Assembly: GCA_902783315.1 (NCBI GenBank)
Contig: CACZQK010000037.1
Location: 1-32,141 of the forward strand
Reading direction: 5' to 3'
Source: an uncultured Erysipelotrichaceae bacterium
GTDB taxonomy: Bacteria > Bacillota_I > Bacilli_A > RF39 > UBA660
DNA length: 32,141 nt
Positions 11,228 through 18,520 of this stretch are shown here, piece after piece. The notes beneath the pieces are model-generated. The model saw only the letters and a program-made list of their open reading frames with translations. It searched no databases and was not told where the DNA came from. Every line of letters begins with the position of its first letter. The stretch's first letter is position 1. The position numbers were made by a program, and so were the translations under genes.

Positions 11228-13447
11228 TTAATTACTATTATAAGTTACTTTATATATTTTATTATTGATTGTTTCTGTAGCGTTTATAATTTCATTTTCA
11301 TTATCGGTAATATTTCCCAATATAGGATCTGTTATTCCTTTTATCGTCCCATCATAAAAATTGATTGTTCCTGTGCTTATTACTCCATAGGTTTCTCCCT
11401 GAATTATAGGAGTACTGTTATTAATATTACCATCTTTTTGACCAATTGTTAGTAATCCTTCGTTTGAAATAGCTTGTTGGTTTAGTCCAGTTATCGTTCC
11501 GCCATTAATTTTTATCGTTCCCCCTCTTAGATTTTGAACGGTTCCCCTTGAGATTGTTGAGGTATCTGGAGTTCCAGTTGCTGATGATGTAATATTCGAA
11601 TTTTCATTAATTTCTACATAGCCTCTTGATAAATTATAAATTGCTTGTCTTGTTCCTGTTGAGATGACATTGGCACTTACTATTAATTTTGCATTTTCAT
11701 TGTTATCAATGGTTGCTTTTGAAGCATTTGAAATTATGGTTCCATTTATAATATTTAGGGTACCTCTATTATTTACAACTTGGTTTTCGTTATTATTTGT
11801 TAAAGTATAGTTTTGTAAATTTAGAGTTATATTTTGATTGGCATTTATTGTGATATTTTCGTGAGTATTTCTTAAAAGATTTATTGTTGTAGGGGTATTG
11901 TCTTTTGACACGTTATTTATAGCCTCTTGAATTGTATTATATTCTACTCCATTTATTTCAGCCACTGCCTCTTTTACCCAATGGGCATAATAGATAATAT
12001 TATCATTTACTATTGTATCTTCGTTTATTTGTGTTCCGGTAGTAGAATCTGTAAACCAACCAATAAGTATATATCCTGATTTAGTAGCAATTGGTGGAGT
12101 ACATAGCCTTTCTTGCTTTGCTACATTTCTTGTTGTTTCATTTACTGTTCCTCCATTGGCATCAAAGGTTACAGTATATGTTTCAGCTAAAAAAATTACT
12201 TTATATATTCTTTCTTCTATTATTTCTTCTGTTTGAGCAATATTATATCTTTCTTCTTTGTCATTTATATAAGATTGGTTATTTGTTGGGCTTTCCTGTC
12301 CTTTTATACTTCCATTATAAAAATTATAATTTTTGGTAGAATTTATCCCATAAACTTTTCCTTGAATGCTTGGAGAGTTTCTATTAGGATCATCATCTTT
12401 TATTCCAATTATCATATTAGCTTCATTTATTACTGCACTAAAGTTATAAGAAATGATTGTTCCTTCTTTTATTATTAGTGTACCATTATTTATATTTTGA
12501 AGTGTTGGTCTTTGATTTGACGTGGAAGTTAAAGTAGAGTTTCTAGTAATTTCTGCTATTCCGCCATTGTTGTATAAAGCTTGTTTGGTACCTGTTGCAG
12601 TAATATTAAGATTTTCTAATTTTAAGTTCCCAGTTTCTTCATTATTGATAGCACCGTGAGGGGCATTAGTCGTCATTGCTCCATTTTTGATTATTAATGA
12701 ACCATTATTTTCTATGATTGGATTGCTTTGATGATTACTAATTGTGTGGTTTTGTAAATCGATTATTATTTTTTTATTTTGATTAATTTCTAGTAGTTCA
12801 CTTGTATTTTGTAGTAATTCAATTTTGGTCTCTATATTGTCTTCCGTTATAGAATTTATGGCAGACTGTAAGGTATCAAAATAAGTATCATTTATTTTAG
12901 CTACTTTATTTTGGATATTAAATTTAAAATTAATGTAAGAGTTTAAAGTATTATTTGTGATTTCTGACAGCGATTCTTTATACTTAAAAGTGATAGTAAA
13001 TTCTTTTTCTTCTTTTGGATTTAGGATATTTCCAGTGTTTATTCCATTTAAAAAAAATTGAATATCTGTATTATCATATCCAATTTCTGTATCATAGATT
13101 GCTTCTACATATGTTGCTGGAAAGTCTGTATTGTTTTTTATTTTTATTTTAAATGTTATTTCTGATGACAAGTCATTTCCTAAGATAATTTTACTATTCA
13201 TTATTGTTAAGTATGGCTCATTAATAACTGATAATGTATGGTCTGCATTAGTGCTTGTTACATATTTTATATCTGTAACCATAACTTCTTTTGCAGAGTT
13301 TGCAGATGCTTCTCCTTCTATTTTTAAATCAATATTTGCAAATTCAGCATATCCAATTCCTAAGATTAGATTTATAAAAATAATTAATGTCAAAAAAAGA
13401 GGACCTTTTTTGATTATTTGGTCCTTCTTTTGATTTGTTGTTTTCAA
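11228..13447 (-). CDS. Large secreted/surface protein: shared N-domain, two beta-helix modules and one InlB B-type repeat
   Basis: The protein has about 739 residues. The start is probably the TTG at 13447, six bases after GGTGGAG; a GTG at 13459 is also open but overlaps that ribosome site. It has a charged N-terminus, then one hydrophobic helix (about 17-34) ending in GIGYAEFA. A beta-rich domain follows (about 35-180) that is homologous to the whole extracellular part of the next upstream gene. Two copies of a module of about 240 residues come next, full of short Asn/Thr/Ile/Gly strands (for example TLIIKEGTI, TIKINGGTI), which suggests a right-handed beta-helix. Between the copies lies one Listeria-Bacteroides repeat (TVTFDANGG ... 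GYILIGWF ... YYAHW). No LPXTG or C-terminal anchor is seen, and the frame ends in IYKVTYNSN, just where another repeat would begin. A role in surface adhesion is inferred. Confidence 0.8.
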   Translation of the reverse strand: MKTTNQKKDQIIKKGPLFLTLIIFINLILGIGYAEFANIDLKIEGEASANSAKEVMVTDIKYVTSTNADHTLSVINEPYLTIMNSKIILGNDLSSEITFKIKIKNNTDFPATYVEAIYDTEIGYDNTDIQFFLNGINTGNILNPKEEKEFTITFKYKESLSEITNNTLNSYINFKFNIQNKVAKINDTYFDTLQSAINSITEDNIETKIELLQNTSELLEINQNKKIIIDLQNHTISNHQSNPIIENNGSLIIKNGAMTTNAPHGAINNEETGNLKLENLNITATGTKQALYNNGGIAEITRNSTLTSTSNQRPTLQNINNGTLIIKEGTIISYNFSAVINEANMIIGIKDDDPNRNSPSIQGKVYGINSTKNYNFYNGSIKGQESPTNNQSYINDKEERYNIAQTEEIIEERIYKVIFLAETYTVTFDANGGTVNETTRNVAKQERLCTPPIATKSGYILIGWFTDSTTGTQINEDTIVNDNIIYYAHWVKEAVAEINGVEYNTIQEAINNVSKDNTPTTINLLRNTHENITINANQNITLNLQNYTLTNNNENQVVNNRGTLNIINGTIISNASKATIDNNENAKLIVSANVISTGTRQAIYNLSRGYVEINENSNITSSATGTPDTSTISRGTVQNLRGGTIKINGGTITGLNQQAISNEGLLTIGQKDGNINNSTPIIQGETYGVISTGTINFYDGTIKGITDPILGNITDNENEIINATETINNKIYKVTYNSN
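11240..12901 (-). repeat. Internal duplication: two beta-helix modules separated by an InlB B-type repeat
   Basis: Module 1 (about 12901-12194) and module 2 (about 11965-11240) align at protein level. Both start with a KIND/EINGVEYNT-like strand, share a TGT(K/R)QA(L/I)YN segment, then IQG-x2-YG-(I/V), then FY-(N/D)-G-(S/T)-IKG, and end in IYKV. The spacer encodes the DANGG-to-YYAHW repeat. The similarity is evident in amino acids and only partial in DNA, so the duplication is old. Confidence 0.75.
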
Positions 13448-13554
13448 ATATATCTCCACCTTTTATATTTATAAATATACGGACTCTTTAATATTATGTT
13501 TTTCAATTTTCTTTGTTTTATTCCTATATTTTATAAATATATAAAATCCTAATA

Positions 13555-14211
13555 TTATTTATCCTCTTGGTTTACTATATTTGTCTTTTCTTCACTTATT
13601 ACCTTTTCTTGAATAGGTTCAGTAGATGATATTTTATCAATTGGTAAGTTTCCAGTTTCTTCAATGACAGTTTGAATATTATTTACTGGAATAATCTCTT
13701 CTTTTTGAAATTTAAAGTTTAAAAATGAATTTAGAGTATTATTTAATAAAATAGTTCCATTATATTTAAAAGTTATCATTAGTGTTTTTATTTCATTTGG
13801 CTCTATTTTATCCCCTATATTTATTCCTGATACTTCATAAACTATACTTGCATTATCATAAAAATTAGGGTCATATATAACTCCAGCAAAAGTATATGCT
13901 TCATTTAATGTATTTTGGATACTTATTTGGTAAGTAATAGTGGATGCTAAATCGTTATTTAATACTATGGTACTGTCCATAGTTGTTTGATAAAAATCAT
14001 TTATTGTTGATAGATTTTGATTTACATTCGTTCCACTTACATAATTTATACTTGTAATCATAATTCCTTCTTGTTTTTTCATAGTAGCTTTTCCACTAAT
14101 TGTTAAGTCAACAGCTGAAATTTGCGCATAACCTACACCTAAGAAAGTACTAAGAATAACTATTATTCCTAAAAATATTAGCGTTATTTTGGTTTTTTTT
14201 GATAATTTCAA
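13555..14211 (-). CDS. Small secreted/membrane-anchored protein sharing the N-domain of its neighbour
   Basis: This 218-residue protein starts with TTG at 14211, placed after GGGGTG. It has a basic N-terminus, a hydrophobic helix (about 9-27) running into GVGYAQISAVDLTISGKAT, and a beta-rich domain to about residue 170. The domain shares with the downstream gene the pattern SxTNxxxxLSxIN, then NDLxSxI, then NNTLNSxxNFKF. The last 45 residues are acidic and Pro/Glu-rich with no anchor, probably disordered. The GYA...L.I.G.A start is one I associate with secreted proteins of uncultured gut Bacillota; no enzymatic motif is present. The two genes probably act together at the surface, but I cannot name the partner. 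Confidence 0.75.
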   Translation of the reverse strand: MKLSKKTKITLIFLGIIVILSTFLGVGYAQISAVDLTISGKATMKKQEGIMITSINYVSGTNVNQNLSTINDFYQTTMDSTIVLNNDLASTITYQISIQNTLNEAYTFAGVIYDPNFYDNASIVYEVSGINIGDKIEPNEIKTLMITFKYNGTILLNNTLNSFLNFKFQKEEIIPVNNIQTVIEETGNLPIDKISSTEPIQEKVISEEKTNIVNQEDK

Positions 14212-14244
14212 ATTATTTCACCCCTAGTTACTTTTTTATAATAA

Positions 14245-14496
14245 TTATTTCCATCTTTTTAATGTTGGAAATAGTTTTGTACAATAATTCCTCATTTCGT
14301 CATTGGTCATTCCTGCCTGTTCTCCATATTGAGAACACATTTCTATATATTCCTTCATATTTACTTTATCAACAAATTCTCCATCTTTATAACAGTATTT
14401 ACAATAATCATTATTAATCGTTTGATCTTTATTTGTTCCTAAATCATCTTTCTTAGTTATAGGCATTCCACAACTTTGACATATTTGCTTTTTCAT
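14245..14496 (-). CDS. Small zinc-ribbon domain protein
   Basis: This 83-residue protein begins ICQSCGMPITKKDD-LGTN and continues to DYCKYCYKDGEF. It matches the putative zinc-ribbon family (zf-ribbon_2) in which CQSCGMP and YCxYCxxxG bind one zinc, followed by a short helical tail with a third Cys. No enzymatic activity is known for the family. The ATG at 14496 follows the end of the metallo-beta-lactamase gene by 15 bases, with AAGGAG overlapping that stop, so the two were one operon. Confidence 0.85.
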   Translation of the reverse strand: MKKQICQSCGMPITKKDDLGTNKDQTINNDYCKYCYKDGEFVDKVNMKEYIEMCSQYGEQAGMTNDEMRNYCTKLFPTLKRWK

Positions 14497-14511
14497 TACT
14501 TTTCTTTCTCC

Positions 14512-15315
14512 TTATTTTATTTCGATTTCTTCTAATTCATCAGGAACTATTATTTTTCCATTAAAATTATTTTGCCCTTCTTCTATATATAATTTTTTCC
14601 TATTTTTTCCATGAGTTTCTTCTGTATGATATAAAATTAAGTTTTTTACGTTTTTTTTCATTCATTAATTTTGAAACACTTTTTACCGTTGATTTGTTTA
14701 TTTCATAAGGATGAAAAATATCTTTATCAGAATCTAGGCAAAAAGCTTCATGCGTTACATAATCGGCATTTTCTAATCTTGAATATATTTTTTCATTAAC
14801 TGTTTCATCTCCTAAAAAACAACTTTTTTATTTTTTTCAGTAAACTCAAAACCATATTCAATTGTGCTTTTAGCACAAATATTAAAAAATGTATATTCTA
14901 TGCCATTTATGATATGTTTATCTCCATCATTTAAAATTACAAAGTTTATTGATTGATATAAAATATCTGTTAATTTCCTTGGTAAAGTGCGCTCTAATAT
15001 TATTTTTATTGTATCATTTACATCTTGATTTGAATAAATATTTATTTTCTCCAAGTTTTCACCAAACATGATAAGGCAACCTATTTTTTTTAATAACCAA
15101 ATTAGTCCTAAGACATGATCTGTATGAGAATGAGAAATAAAAATATTTTTAATACTTTTATAATCAATACCTGCTTGAGTTAATTTATTCATTATTTCAA
15201 TACTTCCACCAGTATCAATTAAAAAATTACCTTTCTCATTTTGAATAGAAAAACAGGTATTGTATAAAGAAAGTGTGCCCCCATTTCCGACACCTAAAAA
15301 TATTAATTTAGTCAT
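14512..15315 (-). pseudogene. Metallo-beta-lactamase-fold hydrolase (RNase Z-like) with two compensating frameshifts
   Basis: From the ATG at 15315 (after AGGAG) the frame runs 167 codons through GGTLSLYNTCFSI, LIDTGG and the zinc motif HSHTDH, then stops in a run of six T where the family should read VVFLGDE. In the next frame the protein continues correctly through VTHEAFCLDSD and LMNEK. A run of eight A then shifts it back to read NLILYHTEETHGKNR and a proper C-terminus ending in ELEEIEIK with TAA at 14514-14512. Restoring one T and removing one A gives a complete enzyme of about 267 residues. The loss is therefore recent, a sequencing artefact in homopolymers, or a slippage switch. Its family is RNase Z/arylsulfatase-like MBL hydrolases. 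Confidence 0.85.
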
Positions 15316-15364
15316 TCAGTCTCCTTATATTGTACAAAATATTTTTTAATAACTTATGATATTA

Positions 15365-15393
15365 ATTGTATCACTTTTTAAATTTAGAAACAA
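15365..15393 (-). promoter_or_regulatory. Promoter of the MBL-zinc ribbon operon
   Basis: TTGTTT (15393-15388) and TACAAT (15370-15365) are 17 bases apart on the minus strand, with TGA just before the -10 (extended -10). It points to the MBL gene at 15315. Confidence 0.6.
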
Positions 15394-15426
15394 TTCCCTT
15401 TTGTTTGCATTTCGGTATTTCATACA

Positions 15427-15490
15427 TTTAGGTATTTTTTTGTACTCACATGGTGTCACATCAATTGTAACTCTACAAAAAATACCTAAA
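15427..15490. repeat. Long inverted repeat between two divergent promoters
   Basis: TTTAGGTATTTTTTTGTA (15427-15444) is the reverse complement of TACAAAAAATACCTAAA (15474-15490) apart from one extra T, around a 29-base spacer. A smaller hairpin, TTGTA-ACTC-TACAA (15465-15478), uses part of the right arm and would exclude the long pairing. The repeat lies upstream of both -35 boxes, so it looks like an operator or binding site shared by the two genes, not a terminator. Confidence 0.7.
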
Positions 15491-15507
15491 CTCAAATTTT
15501 GTTAATG

Positions 15508-15536
15508 TTGTAATATTGTTATTTTTAAGATATAAT
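15508..15536 (+). promoter_or_regulatory. Promoter of the plus-strand orphan gene
   Basis: TTGTAA (15508-15513), a 17-base spacer and a perfect TATAAT (15531-15536) precede the start codon. The predicted transcript would start only a few bases before the AAAGGTGGTG ribosome site. Confidence 0.65.
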
Positions 15537-15556
15537 TGTCTAAAGGTGGTGCAAAG

Positions 15557-16528
15557 ATGCAGTTTGAAATAGCAGACGAAGGCAATTTAAAAAAATTTAT
15601 AACTTCTTTACCAGAAACATTTCAACAAAATGATAATTTTGTAGAGATGATTAATTCTATTATTAATGGCGTGGATGGTTATTTTAAAAATGGATTTACA
15701 GTTTTTGCGTATGTAGATAAAAATGGTAATACAATATCATTGCGTACTAAAGCTATTCAGAAAATAGAACTCCATGTATCTCCTCCATGCAACTATTCAA
15801 CTATGGAGGGACATGATTTTCAAATAAATGAATTGGGAGATTTATTTCATACTTATTCTTATGGAAATTTGTATGATGCAAATAATTATTGTAAAAGTTA
15901 TAATTTTGATAATCTTAATAATTTTCAAATTAGTGAAGGTGATGCAATTTTAGATGCTAATTATAAGTATGAAAAATTTAATGAAGATGGAATATGTATG
16001 ATAAAATCAGATTTTTATGAAAATATTGTTTTACTAAATAAGGTTAATTATAAAGATTCTGACTCATTTTCTCAACAATTATTTAAACTTCATAAGCCAA
16101 CAAATTTTGATTTTATGGGTGGGCCGATCCTCAGTCAATCCAGTGCAGGTGGACAGGTTCATTCTTCTTTTAGAATTAAATATCCAGGACTTGCTCAGTT
16201 AAATTCTTATAAAGTTGATTCTTGGGGAAACAACAGCAATACGAATTTTATGATTGCTCGTGTAAGTTATGAACATCCAGATTTATTAGCAATATGGTCC
16301 CCTCAGGATTATGTTGCAACATGGGAAAATGGAGGTTGGGCAGTAAATAATGATTATATAAATATCGGTAGAGTCAATTTAGAAGATGCGGAAAACTACG
16401 TAGAAAGAAAGTTTGAAGAAAGCCTACCAGAAAGTGAATTTGCTAAAAATCCAAGAAATAAAAGAAAACTTGAGGGACTGTTTAAACTTACAACTACTGT
16501 AAGTGAAAAATTAGGAACAAAAAAGTAG
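15557..16528 (+). CDS. Uncharacterised protein, only clear plus-strand gene
   Basis: The protein has 323 residues from an ATG at 15557 with AAAGGTGGTG 5-6 bases before it; a TTG at 15536 is open but overlaps the -10 box and is not the start. I do not recognise a family. There is no signal peptide or membrane helix, and it is rich in Asn, Phe and Tyr. The first 65 residues are alternating helix-like, followed by a strand-rich middle. A central block (about residues 185-265) is dense in Gly, Ser, Asn and Trp with runs such as GGPILSQSSAGGQVH and WENGGWAVNND, suggestive of a compact beta domain. The last 55 residues are charged and helical. It stands alone with its own promoter and terminator, facing away from the MBL gene across an inverted repeat. 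It is probably cytoplasmic; its function is unknown. Confidence 0.75.
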   Translation: MQFEIADEGNLKKFITSLPETFQQNDNFVEMINSIINGVDGYFKNGFTVFAYVDKNGNTISLRTKAIQKIELHVSPPCNYSTMEGHDFQINELGDLFHTYSYGNLYDANNYCKSYNFDNLNNFQISEGDAILDANYKYEKFNEDGICMIKSDFYENIVLLNKVNYKDSDSFSQQLFKLHKPTNFDFMGGPILSQSSAGGQVHSSFRIKYPGLAQLNSYKVDSWGNNSNTNFMIARVSYEHPDLLAIWSPQDYVATWENGGWAVNNDYINIGRVNLEDAENYVERKFEESLPESEFAKNPRNKRKLEGLFKLTTTVSEKLGTKK

Positions 16529-16549
16529 ACAATAGTGTCTATTTTTTTC
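16521..16549 (+). terminator. Intrinsic terminator of the plus-strand gene
   Basis: TAGACA pairs with TGTCTA across an ATAG loop, the stem is lengthened by A-T pairs and one G-T pair, and seven T follow. The stem contains the TAG stop codon. Confidence 0.85.
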
Positions 16550-16893
16550 TATTCTATTCAATATCTGAATGATAAATTTGAAAGTAAAAAAGCATTAATA
16601 ATATGTATATATAAAAAAATAAATACTATAAAAGCACGCTGAATTGAAGATGAAATTATTCTAAATATCAATCAAGCTTTAGTTTATTTTTTGTCATATG
16701 TAATCTTTTTAACTAATTTTATTATCACAATCTAATGAGTTAGATGTTGACACAAATAGGTAATTCATTAAATATAAATTAATTTGTTAGAACATGCTAG
16801 ATATAAAAAAAAGACAACTCAATATAAATCTGAATTATGTTTTTTTTACTCTCTTTATAAACCATCTATTTTCATTGATTCATCTTTCTTTTT
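16550..16893. other. Non-coding gap between two convergent genes
   Basis: About 340 AT-rich bases carry no convincing gene. There is a 6-base inverted repeat (ATCTAA-TGAG-TTAGAT, 16730-16745) followed by a lone TTGACA (16747-16752) whose spacing to a TATAAA is too long. At 16808-16838 a weak minus-strand stem with a G-U pair is followed by eight T; it could be the terminator of the histidine phosphatase gene, about 60 bases after its stop. I see no recognisable remnant. Confidence 0.4.
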
Positions 16894-17427
16894 TTATGAA
16901 GTATTCCATCCTGGTTTCCATGATTTTGTTTTTCGCCAGTCATTTGCAATAGCTTCTTCCCAGGTGATATTTTTAGTAATTACTTCTAAGGCTAGTTGTG
17001 GAGCTTTGTGGGCTACTAGAGCTATTGTTTTGTTGTCATAATTTTTTATTAAATAGTAACAAAAATTTCTCAGTCTTTTTTCAACATCCTTTAAAGATTC
17101 TCCATTTGGGAAAGGATCATTAATATATTCTTCATATCTTACAAGTGATGTATCTTCTCCATTATAATCGCCATAGTTACATTCTCTTATTCTACTATCA
17201 TTTAAAATTTCTTTTTGTCCTTTAAAAGTATAGTTTGCAGAATCAATTGCTCTTTTTAAATCCGATGATATTACTAAATCAATATCATCAAGACTAATTT
17301 GATCTTTTAATTTTAAACTTTGTTCTATACCTTTTTCAGATAGTTTTCCTGGAAGCCTTCCTGTTGATTTATGCTCTAAATTATCAGTTGTTGTTCCATG
17401 AACAAAATAAATTATTTTAACCGTTAT
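16894..17427 (-). CDS. Histidine phosphatase family protein without a canonical start codon
   Basis: A complete open frame of about 177 codons begins near 17427 and ends with TAA at 16896-16894. It reads IIYFVHGTTTDN, then STGRLPGKLSEKG, SSDLKRAIDSA, IRECNYGDYNG, and ALVAHKAPQLALE. These are the catalytic first His (in VHG, replacing RHG), the typical glycolytic-mutase-like SDLxRAxxSA, the catalytic Glu in RECNYGDYNG and the second His in VAHKAP. It is about the usual length for a short phosphoglycerate mutase-like phosphatase. No ATG, GTG or TTG exists near its start: after AAAGGA the frame reads ATA-ATA-ACG-GTT, so initiation at ATA is the likeliest, or the gene is broken by a start mutation. 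The substrate is unknown. It follows DUF2000 by 12 bases in one operon. Confidence 0.75.
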   Translation of the reverse strand: MTVKIIYFVHGTTTDNLEHKSTGRLPGKLSEKGIEQSLKLKDQISLDDIDLVISSDLKRAIDSANYTFKGQKEILNDSRIRECNYGDYNGEDTSLVRYEEYINDPFPNGESLKDVEKRLRNFCYYLIKNYDNKTIALVAHKAPQLALEVITKNITWEEAIANDWRKTKSWKPGWNTS

Positions 17428-17439
17428 TATTTTCCTTTC

Positions 17440-17865
17440 TTAATGCCATAATGAGAATTTTTTTGTTATTGGATTTATTATATCTTTTTCTCCAAAAGCG
17501 ACAATACAAAAGTATTCCATATTTTCATCACTGGTTTCTTTTGTTTTAGCTAATTGTTCTTTATAAGTATCACCAGTCATGGTTACTGTGAAATCTGTAA
17601 AATGAACTTTTTGCTCTTGAAATTGTTTTCTAGCTTTTTTTATTTCACCATTACTTCCTCTAAGCACAATTAAAGAGAGTGCTGATATACTCTTATGATT
17701 TGTATCTTTTCCCTCATAGTCTATAAAATTCATTTTTTCTTTTTCTTCTGGGGTTGCAGAATTAACTAATCCCAAACAAGCATGGGCAACGGCATTTAAA
17801 GCTTTTCCACTTTCTATTTTTTTATTTACAATCACTACAAATTTGTAAGCATCTGCATTGTCCAT
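17440..17865 (-). CDS. DUF2000 family protein (peptidyl-tRNA hydrolase 2-like fold)
   Basis: This 141-residue protein starts KFVVIVNKKIESGKALNAVAHACLGL, which is the DUF2000 signature: the strand KFVV, the motif LNA-x-AH and the following GL. The tail holds FTVTMTGDTYKEQ. The fold is related to the PTH2 type of peptidyl-tRNA hydrolase, but no activity is established for DUF2000. The ATG has GGAGGAATATCA before it. Upstream bases contain two TATAAT-like elements with no good -35. It is followed closely by the histidine phosphatase gene, so these two form an operon. Complete and apparently intact. Confidence 0.85.
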   Translation of the reverse strand: MDNADAYKFVVIVNKKIESGKALNAVAHACLGLVNSATPEEKEKMNFIDYEGKDTNHKSISALSLIVLRGSNGEIKKARKQFQEQKVHFTDFTVTMTGDTYKEQLAKTKETSDENMEYFCIVAFGEKDIINPITKKFSLWH

Positions 17866-17943
17866 TGATATTCCTCCTTTTGTAATTATATTATATCTAA
17901 TATCTTTATATAATACTAGTTAATTAAACTATTTTAAAACTTA

Positions 17944-17971
17944 AAAAGCTTATTTTGACAAATAAGCTTTT
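17944..17971 (-). terminator. Terminator after the DUF6512 gene
   Basis: A perfect 12-base stem, AAAAGCTTATTT with AAATAAGCTTTT, has a 4-base loop and begins 10 bases beyond the stop of the DUF6512 gene. The T-tract on the minus strand is short, so part of the stop signal may come from the stem itself. Confidence 0.7.
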
Positions 17972-17980
17972 GAGTGACGA

Positions 17981-18520
17981 TTAATGCTTATGGTGGTGAT
18001 CCATTTCTGTATGTCCTGATAGACCATATTTATGAGAAATAGGGTCTTCAAAAATAAAGTTTTTTACTGGATTGAATGTTAAAAACATATAAGCACATAT
18101 TTCAAAAAATAGTAGTATACAACTTGCGTATGTATATATAAAAGGGATAGATTCAAAGTTTATAAAATAGTAAAATACTAAATTAGAACATATAACTGTT
18201 ATATAAAAGCATATAACATCTACAAATAAAATAGATTTTTTTGTGAATGTTGTATAACTATAAAATAGTATTGGTATTAGTATTATTATCGTTAATAAGC
18301 TTAAAGACTTTCCAATAAAATAATTAGCATTTAGTCCATAAATATATCCATCATATAAACTCCACAAAATAGTTGGAGTCATGCAGATTTTTATATGTTC
18401 CCATGTACTTTCATTTACTGCTGAAAAAATAGCAACAAATTTATTATGATGACTTAATTCATAAGTGAAATGTAAAAGTGTTCCAATAACTGCTATAAAA
18501 AGAATTCCTATATATAACAT
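17981..18520 (-). CDS. DUF6512 family membrane protein with His-rich tail
   Basis: The protein has 179 residues from the ATG at 18520, which is 7 bases after AAAGG; the ATG at 18526 is too close to that site. It has five hydrophobic segments. The N-terminal pattern GTLLHFTYELSHHN followed by FSAVNESTWEHIK is characteristic of DUF6512 proteins: the NESTWEH block sits at the cytoplasmic end of the second region. The C-terminus ends HTEMDHHHKH, a His-rich cluster that may bind a metal. The function of the family is unknown. It follows the surface protein gene by about 12 bases and is probably co-transcribed with it. Confidence 0.8.
   Translation of the reverse strand: MLYIGILFIAVIGTLLHFTYELSHHNKFVAIFSAVNESTWEHIKICMTPTILWSLYDGYIYGLNANYFIGKSLSLLTIIILIPILFYSYTTFTKKSILFVDVICFYITVICSNLVFYYFINFESIPFIYTYASCILLFFEICAYMFLTFNPVKNFIFEDPISHKYGLSGHTEMDHHHKH

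What the first reader, a model, noticed from the sequence alone, without database searches (positions are those of the whole stretch)
15557..16528. Unrecognised standalone gene on the opposite strand
It is the only convincing plus-strand gene, with its own TTGTAA-N17-TATAAT promoter, good ribosome site and terminator. It has 323 residues, no known motif that I can see, and a Gly/Ser/Asn/Trp-rich centre. It faces a decaying MBL gene across an inverted repeat. A self-contained cassette of this kind is a candidate accessory function.
Basis: partly seen in the sequence, partly recalled or inferred. Interest (0 to 1): 0.52.

Follow-up and report, generated by a model that had tools for sequence, protein, structure and literature searches.

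The report
Orphan gene beside insertion-sequence remnant
This is a real, intact stand-alone gene with no relative found so far, sitting in a small stretch of extra DNA next to the broken end of a jumping gene; its function is unknown, and such orphan genes are common in bacteria.

Summary
15557-16528 (+) is a genuine 323-codon gene: far longer than shuffles allow, host-like codon use, TTGTAA-N17-TATAAT promoter, ribosome site and hairpin-plus-T terminator. It encodes a soluble, acidic 37-kDa protein with no membrane span. It is an ORFan: no match in Pfam, NCBIfam, PHROGs, PADLOC, PDB sequences, phage/plasmid/viral collections or GTDB contigs, none in the 38 other genomes of its genus, only chance-level hits in class and order samples. 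Structure prediction without relatives failed. (1) The "inverted repeat" is not part of a cassette: it is the end of a decayed IS481-family insertion sequence; intact 1.1-kb copies flanked by 25-bp repeats exist in another species of the genus. The gene lies just outside the IS end. (2) The gene is one of five in a 3.7-kb block (zinc ribbon, broken MBL, this gene, degenerate histidine phosphatase, DUF2000); the nearest relative has about 90 bp there between the same two flanking genes. Best reading: a lineage-specific accessory gene in an IS-scarred variable block, intact while two neighbours look broken. Its biochemical role is not determined; a protective role is only a guess.

The parts
15557..16528 (+). 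ORFan gene P0001, 323 aa, soluble acidic protein, no homologue found
15508..15536 (+). promoter TTGTAA-N17-TATAAT
   Evidence: consensus match only
15542..15549 (+). ribosome-binding site AAAGGTGG, 7 nt before the ATG
   Evidence: read by eye
16519..16548 (+). intrinsic terminator, 13-bp stem overlapping the stop codon, with a T tract
   Evidence: z -3.78
15399..15478 (-). remnant of the left (transposase-start) end of an IS481-family insertion sequence; the transposase would have read to the left
15452..15477 (-). 26-bp terminal inverted repeat of that IS (TGT... terminus); outer edge faces the gene
   Evidence: compared with 1117-bp copies in G007 (L106, L110)
15427..15490 (.). the 'inverted repeat': 14-nt perfect arms around the IS terminus; left arm inside the IS remnant, right arm in the flank
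14518..15315 (-). MBL-fold hydrolase (RNase Z-like), broken by two opposite frameshifts
14245..14511 (-). zinc-ribbon protein (PF12674)
16894..17439 (-). histidine phosphatase (PF00300) without an ATG/GTG/TTG start and without the Arg of the RHG motif (motif recalled)
17440..17865 (-). DUF2000 gene, absent from the 38 other genomes of the genus
14242..17980 (.). 3739-bp accessory block; nearest relative G059 has about 90 bp here between the same two flanking genes

Best explanation
P0001 is a real, monocistronic, lineage-restricted (ORFan) accessory gene. It lies in a 3.7-kb block that this genome carries and its nearest sequenced relative lacks, directly outside the remaining end of a decayed IS481-family insertion sequence. 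Shown: intact coding sequence, its own signals, host-like codon use, no membrane span, no detectable relative, block absent at the same place in the nearest relative, IS remnant at the MBL/P0001 boundary. Inferred: the gene is transcribed from its own promoter and makes a 37-kDa cytosolic protein; the block arrived by transfer and was trimmed by IS-adjacent deletion; the protein is dispensable. Commitment on function, weak (about 0.2): a stand-alone cytosolic protective protein (against a phage, a mobile element or a competitor's toxin), because it is solitary, not evidently secreted, lineage-specific, in a variable block and intact while two neighbours look broken. No sequence or fold evidence supports that step.
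For: Coding statistics and signals. No family in four libraries (Pfam fragments) or in PDB sequences (one chance hit, E 0.7). No match in 72,556 plasmid and 50,697 phage records; none confirmed in viral contigs or GTDB contigs, scans which find close relatives only. Genus: 0 of 38 other genomes at E <= 0.001 (one 23-residue hit at E 0.2). Phylum sample: 0 of 391 others. prfB-upstream stretches of 20 relatives fetched, plus one stretch: P0001 in 0 of 21. G059, the nearest by prfB (88%), keeps LP218 and DUF6512 as neighbours, and nucleotide homology stops at 14241 and resumes at 17981. IS identity: the repeat recurs in this genome and three others with the same sharp end; two identical copies in G007 carry a transposase that hits NF033577 (IS481) at 6.6e-55 and have TGT...ACA termini. 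Hydropathy: maximum 19-residue mean 0.68, GRAVY -0.59, pI 5.1, 37.0 kDa.
Against: Only one relative (G059) is syntenic across the block, so gain here and loss there cannot be told apart from that pair alone. The genome is a 72%-complete draft in 108 contigs; frameshifts in the neighbours may be assembly errors, which weakens the contrast 'intact amid decay'. Class and order samples gave 20 of 394 and 15 of 384 other genomes with hits at E <= 0.1 per genome, the best 3.6e-4. All 22 loci kept from those two calls were scored again and five of the 22 were read in full; these look like chance: short, mostly not collinear, several in recognisable enzymes or regulators. A distant relative among the unread ones is not excluded. 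No expression or selection data exist, and without a relative dN/dS cannot be computed.
Confidence: 0.78

Rival explanations
1. P0001 is a highly diverged member of a known family (an enzyme or a binding protein), not recognised because no intermediate sequences are available.
For: 323 aa, soluble, mixed predicted helix and strand; single-sequence models are poor (pLDDT 35.7 whole, 68.5 for residues 1-78), so the fold is open. This does not conflict with the genomic reading.
Against: No profile or fold hit at usable significance: Pfam fragments gave one hit at E 0.15; Foldseek with the 1-78 model gave 0 hits at E <= 0.001 in PDB and in BFVD.
Confidence: 0.45
2. P0001 is a phage-derived accessory (moron) gene left by a prophage.
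For: Solitary gene with its own promoter and terminator on the opposite strand to its surroundings, the layout recalled for phage morons.
Against: No PHROG hit, no phage record, no viral contig; the neighbours in the block scanned with Pfam are not phage proteins.
Confidence: 0.12
3. P0001 was carried here as a passenger or as part of a composite transposon of the IS481-family element.
For: It starts 79 bp outside the IS terminus.
Against: It lies outside the terminus, not inside; no second terminus in the window (best other match 16-17 of 26); the 376 bp from 16520 hold no strong repeat of this genome.
Confidence: 0.07
4. The gene is a non-functional remnant or an assembly artefact.
For: Draft assembly; neighbouring MBL and phosphatase look broken.
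Against: Uninterrupted 323 codons with host-like codon use and positioned signals; the genes on both sides of the block are syntenic with G059.
Confidence: 0.06

Closest known systems
Taxonomically restricted (ORFan) accessory genes of bacterial variable regions
   Same: Intact coding sequence, no relatives found, absent at the same place in close relatives, next to an IS remnant
   Different: Nothing distinctive; here the gene has its own promoter and terminator and runs opposite to its surroundings
IS481 family, IS1202 group (for the repeat, not the gene)
   Same: IS481-family transposase hit, TGT...ACA termini, 25-bp direct repeats at intact copies in G007, a length reported for part of the IS1202 group (PMC10045372, passages read)
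   Different: The window keeps only about 80 bp of one end, without transposase; the G007 transposase scores below the NF033577 cut-off (186.6 against 224)
5bmt (uncharacterised protein, PDB)
   Same: 42-residue weak similarity, E 0.7
   Different: Chance level; the rest of the protein is not matched

Membership tests
ORFan / taxonomically restricted gene | No detectable homologue in databases | tested here: met
   class and order hits only chance-like among those read
ORFan / taxonomically restricted gene | Real coding sequence | tested here: met
   length and codon score; signals
IS481-family insertion sequence (for the repeat) | DDE transposase of the family in intact copies | tested here: met
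   rve 3.2e-16, NF033577 6.6e-55, but below the latter's curated cut-off
IS481-family insertion sequence (for the repeat) | Terminal inverted repeats with TGT/ACA ends | tested here: met
   both ends in the G007 copies; the window has one end only
IS481-family insertion sequence (for the repeat) | Target-site duplication at the window copy | tested here: inconclusive
   no direct copy of the outer flank in the window; the element is truncated, so a second copy would have been lost
Prophage moron | Homologues in phages or phage genes nearby | tested here: not met
Anti-phage defence gene | Match to a known defence family | tested here: not met
Anti-phage defence or immunity gene | Protection phenotype | not testable with these tools
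   needs experiment

The most novel reading that the evidence does not exclude
P0001 is the first seen member of a new family of stand-alone cytosolic protective proteins (against phage, mobile element or toxin) in this small-genome lineage, kept intact by selection in an otherwise decaying accessory block.
Probability: 0.1. Interest if true: 0.55.

Novelty: new member of a known kind. Interest (0 to 1): 0.22.

Why it matters
As it stands it is one more intact orphan gene in a small draft genome. It would matter if it proved to be a founding member of a protective or metabolic family. The firmer gain is the correction: the repeat that made it look like a cassette is a transposon end, and the unit that varies between relatives is a five-gene block.

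Tried and rejected
Families: Pfam, NCBIfam, PHROGs, PADLOC for the whole protein, Pfam for four fragments: nothing usable. PDB sequence search, E up to 10: one chance hit. AlphaFold on the single sequence: unusable (pLDDT 35.7); residues 1-78 reached 68.5 but Foldseek gave nothing below E 0.1; not used as evidence of a fold.

Weak six-frame hits in the class and order samples: the 22 loci kept from those calls were scored again; five ORFs were read in full and look like chance. The best-looking by identity (L011, 40% over 42 residues, similar length) is an RpiR-like regulator by my reading, not by a search.

Idea that the inverted repeat is an operator, attenuator or RNA: Rfam gave nothing; dropped when the same repeat proved to be an IS end. 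Idea of P0001 as IS passenger or composite transposon: no second terminus, no strong repeat downstream. Pattern of the IS terminus in viral contigs: none.

Literature: search listings only; passages of PMC10045372 read. Two of these searches (ORFan genes in gut genomes; RF39) gave background only and are not used. That the organism is an RF39-like member of the Bacilli is my guess from genome sizes and kinship; no call names it.

Full report
The gene is real. The plus-strand frame at 15557-16528 codes for 323 residues. The longest stop-to-stop frame in the region is 330 aa, against at most 147 in 1000 dinucleotide shuffles, and its codon score (0.263 bits/codon) lies within the spread of the 30 other window genes, with negative scores in the other two forward frames. 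TTGTAA-N17-TATAAT stands at 15508-15536; such matches as a class are at chance level here (24 found, 22.6 expected), so only the position speaks for it. AAAGGTGG stands 7 nt before the ATG. A 13-bp hairpin overlapping the stop codon, with a T tract, folds at -11.4 kcal/mol, z -3.78.

The protein is acidic (pI 5.1), 37.0 kDa, GRAVY -0.59, with no stretch hydrophobic enough to span a membrane (maximum 19-residue mean 0.68). Residues 185-265 are 37% Gly/Ser/Asn/Trp against 27% overall, a mild bias.

It has no relative that I could find. No hit in Pfam, NCBIfam, PHROGs or PADLOC at E <= 1, none in PDB sequences below E 0.7, none in 72,556 plasmid and 50,697 phage records. Exact-peptide scans, which reach close relatives only, found none in viral contigs or GTDB contigs. 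In whole genomes: 0 of 38 others in the genus at E <= 0.001, 0 of 391 others in a phylum sample. In the class sample 20 of 394 others and in the order sample 15 of 384 others had hits at E <= 0.1 per genome, the best at 3.6e-4. These are short and mostly off-diagonal; the five of 22 loci that I read in full include what look to me like an RNA methyltransferase, an acyltransferase and an RpiR-type regulator, so I take them as chance.

Structure prediction does not help. The single-sequence model of the whole protein has pLDDT 35.7; residues 1-78 reach 68.5, but Foldseek gives 0 matches at E <= 0.001 in PDB and in BFVD.

The surroundings vary between relatives. prfB, about 9 kb away, was found in 34 of 39 genus genomes (own included) at E <= 1e-80. 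I took up to 20 kb upstream of it from 20 genomes and used one more stretch. P0001 occurs in 0 of these 21. The nearest genome, G059 (prfB 88% identical), keeps the order DUF6512, LP218, 743-aa repeat protein, ABC transporter, S66 peptidase, membrane protein, prfB. Nucleotide homology with the window runs to 14241 and resumes at 17981; between, the window has 3739 bp and G059 about 90 bp. Beyond DUF6512 the two genomes differ again. So this genome carries a 3.7-kb block with five genes: zinc ribbon, MBL, P0001, histidine phosphatase and DUF2000. DUF2000 is likewise absent from the 38 other genomes; the MBL has relatives in 5 of 38, the best 56% identical, and none of those genomes has P0001. 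With one syntenic relative, gain and loss cannot be told apart; the absence of P0001 and DUF2000 across the genus favours gain.

Two neighbours look broken. The MBL frame shifts and shifts back between about codons 168 and 218 of its G029 relative. The phosphatase has no ATG, GTG or TTG start and lacks the Arg of the RHG motif (the motif is recalled). The genome is a 72%-complete draft, so assembly error is possible.

The inverted repeat is a transposon end. Its 44-bp core recurs in this genome, and a 136-bp version is matched in 4 of 39 genus genomes (own included), always ending within one base of the same place. Two copies in G007 are identical over the 1117-bp element, carry a transposase (NF033577 IS481, 6.6e-55, below its cut-off; rve 3.2e-16), have 26-bp inverted termini of the TGT...ACA type and are flanked by 25-bp direct repeats, one pair with a mismatch. 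The window keeps a 26-bp terminus at 15452-15477 and sub-terminal sequence to its left, about 80 bp in all. The outer edge faces P0001, and no second terminus is present in the window. So P0001 lies just outside a truncated IS, and the IS marks the seam between MBL and P0001. The perfect 14-nt arms exceed shuffles (0 of 300); why the left arm matches the flank is not explained.

Best account: an intact, separately transcribed, lineage-specific accessory gene in an IS-scarred, partly decaying block. Biochemical function is not determined. If I must commit, I guess a cytosolic protective protein, at about 0.2, by inference from context alone. The finding is a good example of an orphan gene but an ordinary kind of thing.

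Noticed in passing
L106 1502-2618 and L110 1501-2617 (G007): An intact 1117-bp IS481-family element in two identical copies flanked by 25-bp direct repeats (one mismatch in one pair); PMC10045372 gives 6 bp as usual for IS481 and 24-29 bp for part of its IS1202 group, so this is probably an IS1202-group member.
   Followed up: partly
L105 1066-1646 (G000 contig C73); L040 (contig C81): Decayed copies of the same IS with transposase remnants in the window's own genome.
   Followed up: partly
L107 1444-1572 (G018): Two inverted ends of the same IS, back to back, just downstream of a gene that reads like a XerC-type tyrosine recombinase (gene named by eye).
   Followed up: no
window 14518-15315 (-): RNase Z-like MBL gene with two opposite frameshifts: decay or assembly error.
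   Followed up: partly
window 16894-17439 (-): Histidine phosphatase gene with no usual start codon and without the Arg of the RHG motif.
   Followed up: partly
window 15427-15490: The left arm of the perfect 14-nt inverted repeat differs from other IS copies and matches the flank exactly; a template-switch event could explain it, untested.
   Followed up: no
window 11228-14211 (-): Two secreted-looking proteins (743 and 218 aa) with similar N-terminal regions by eye, the larger with a Listeria-Bacteroides repeat; both conserved in G059 at 73-74%.
   Followed up: no
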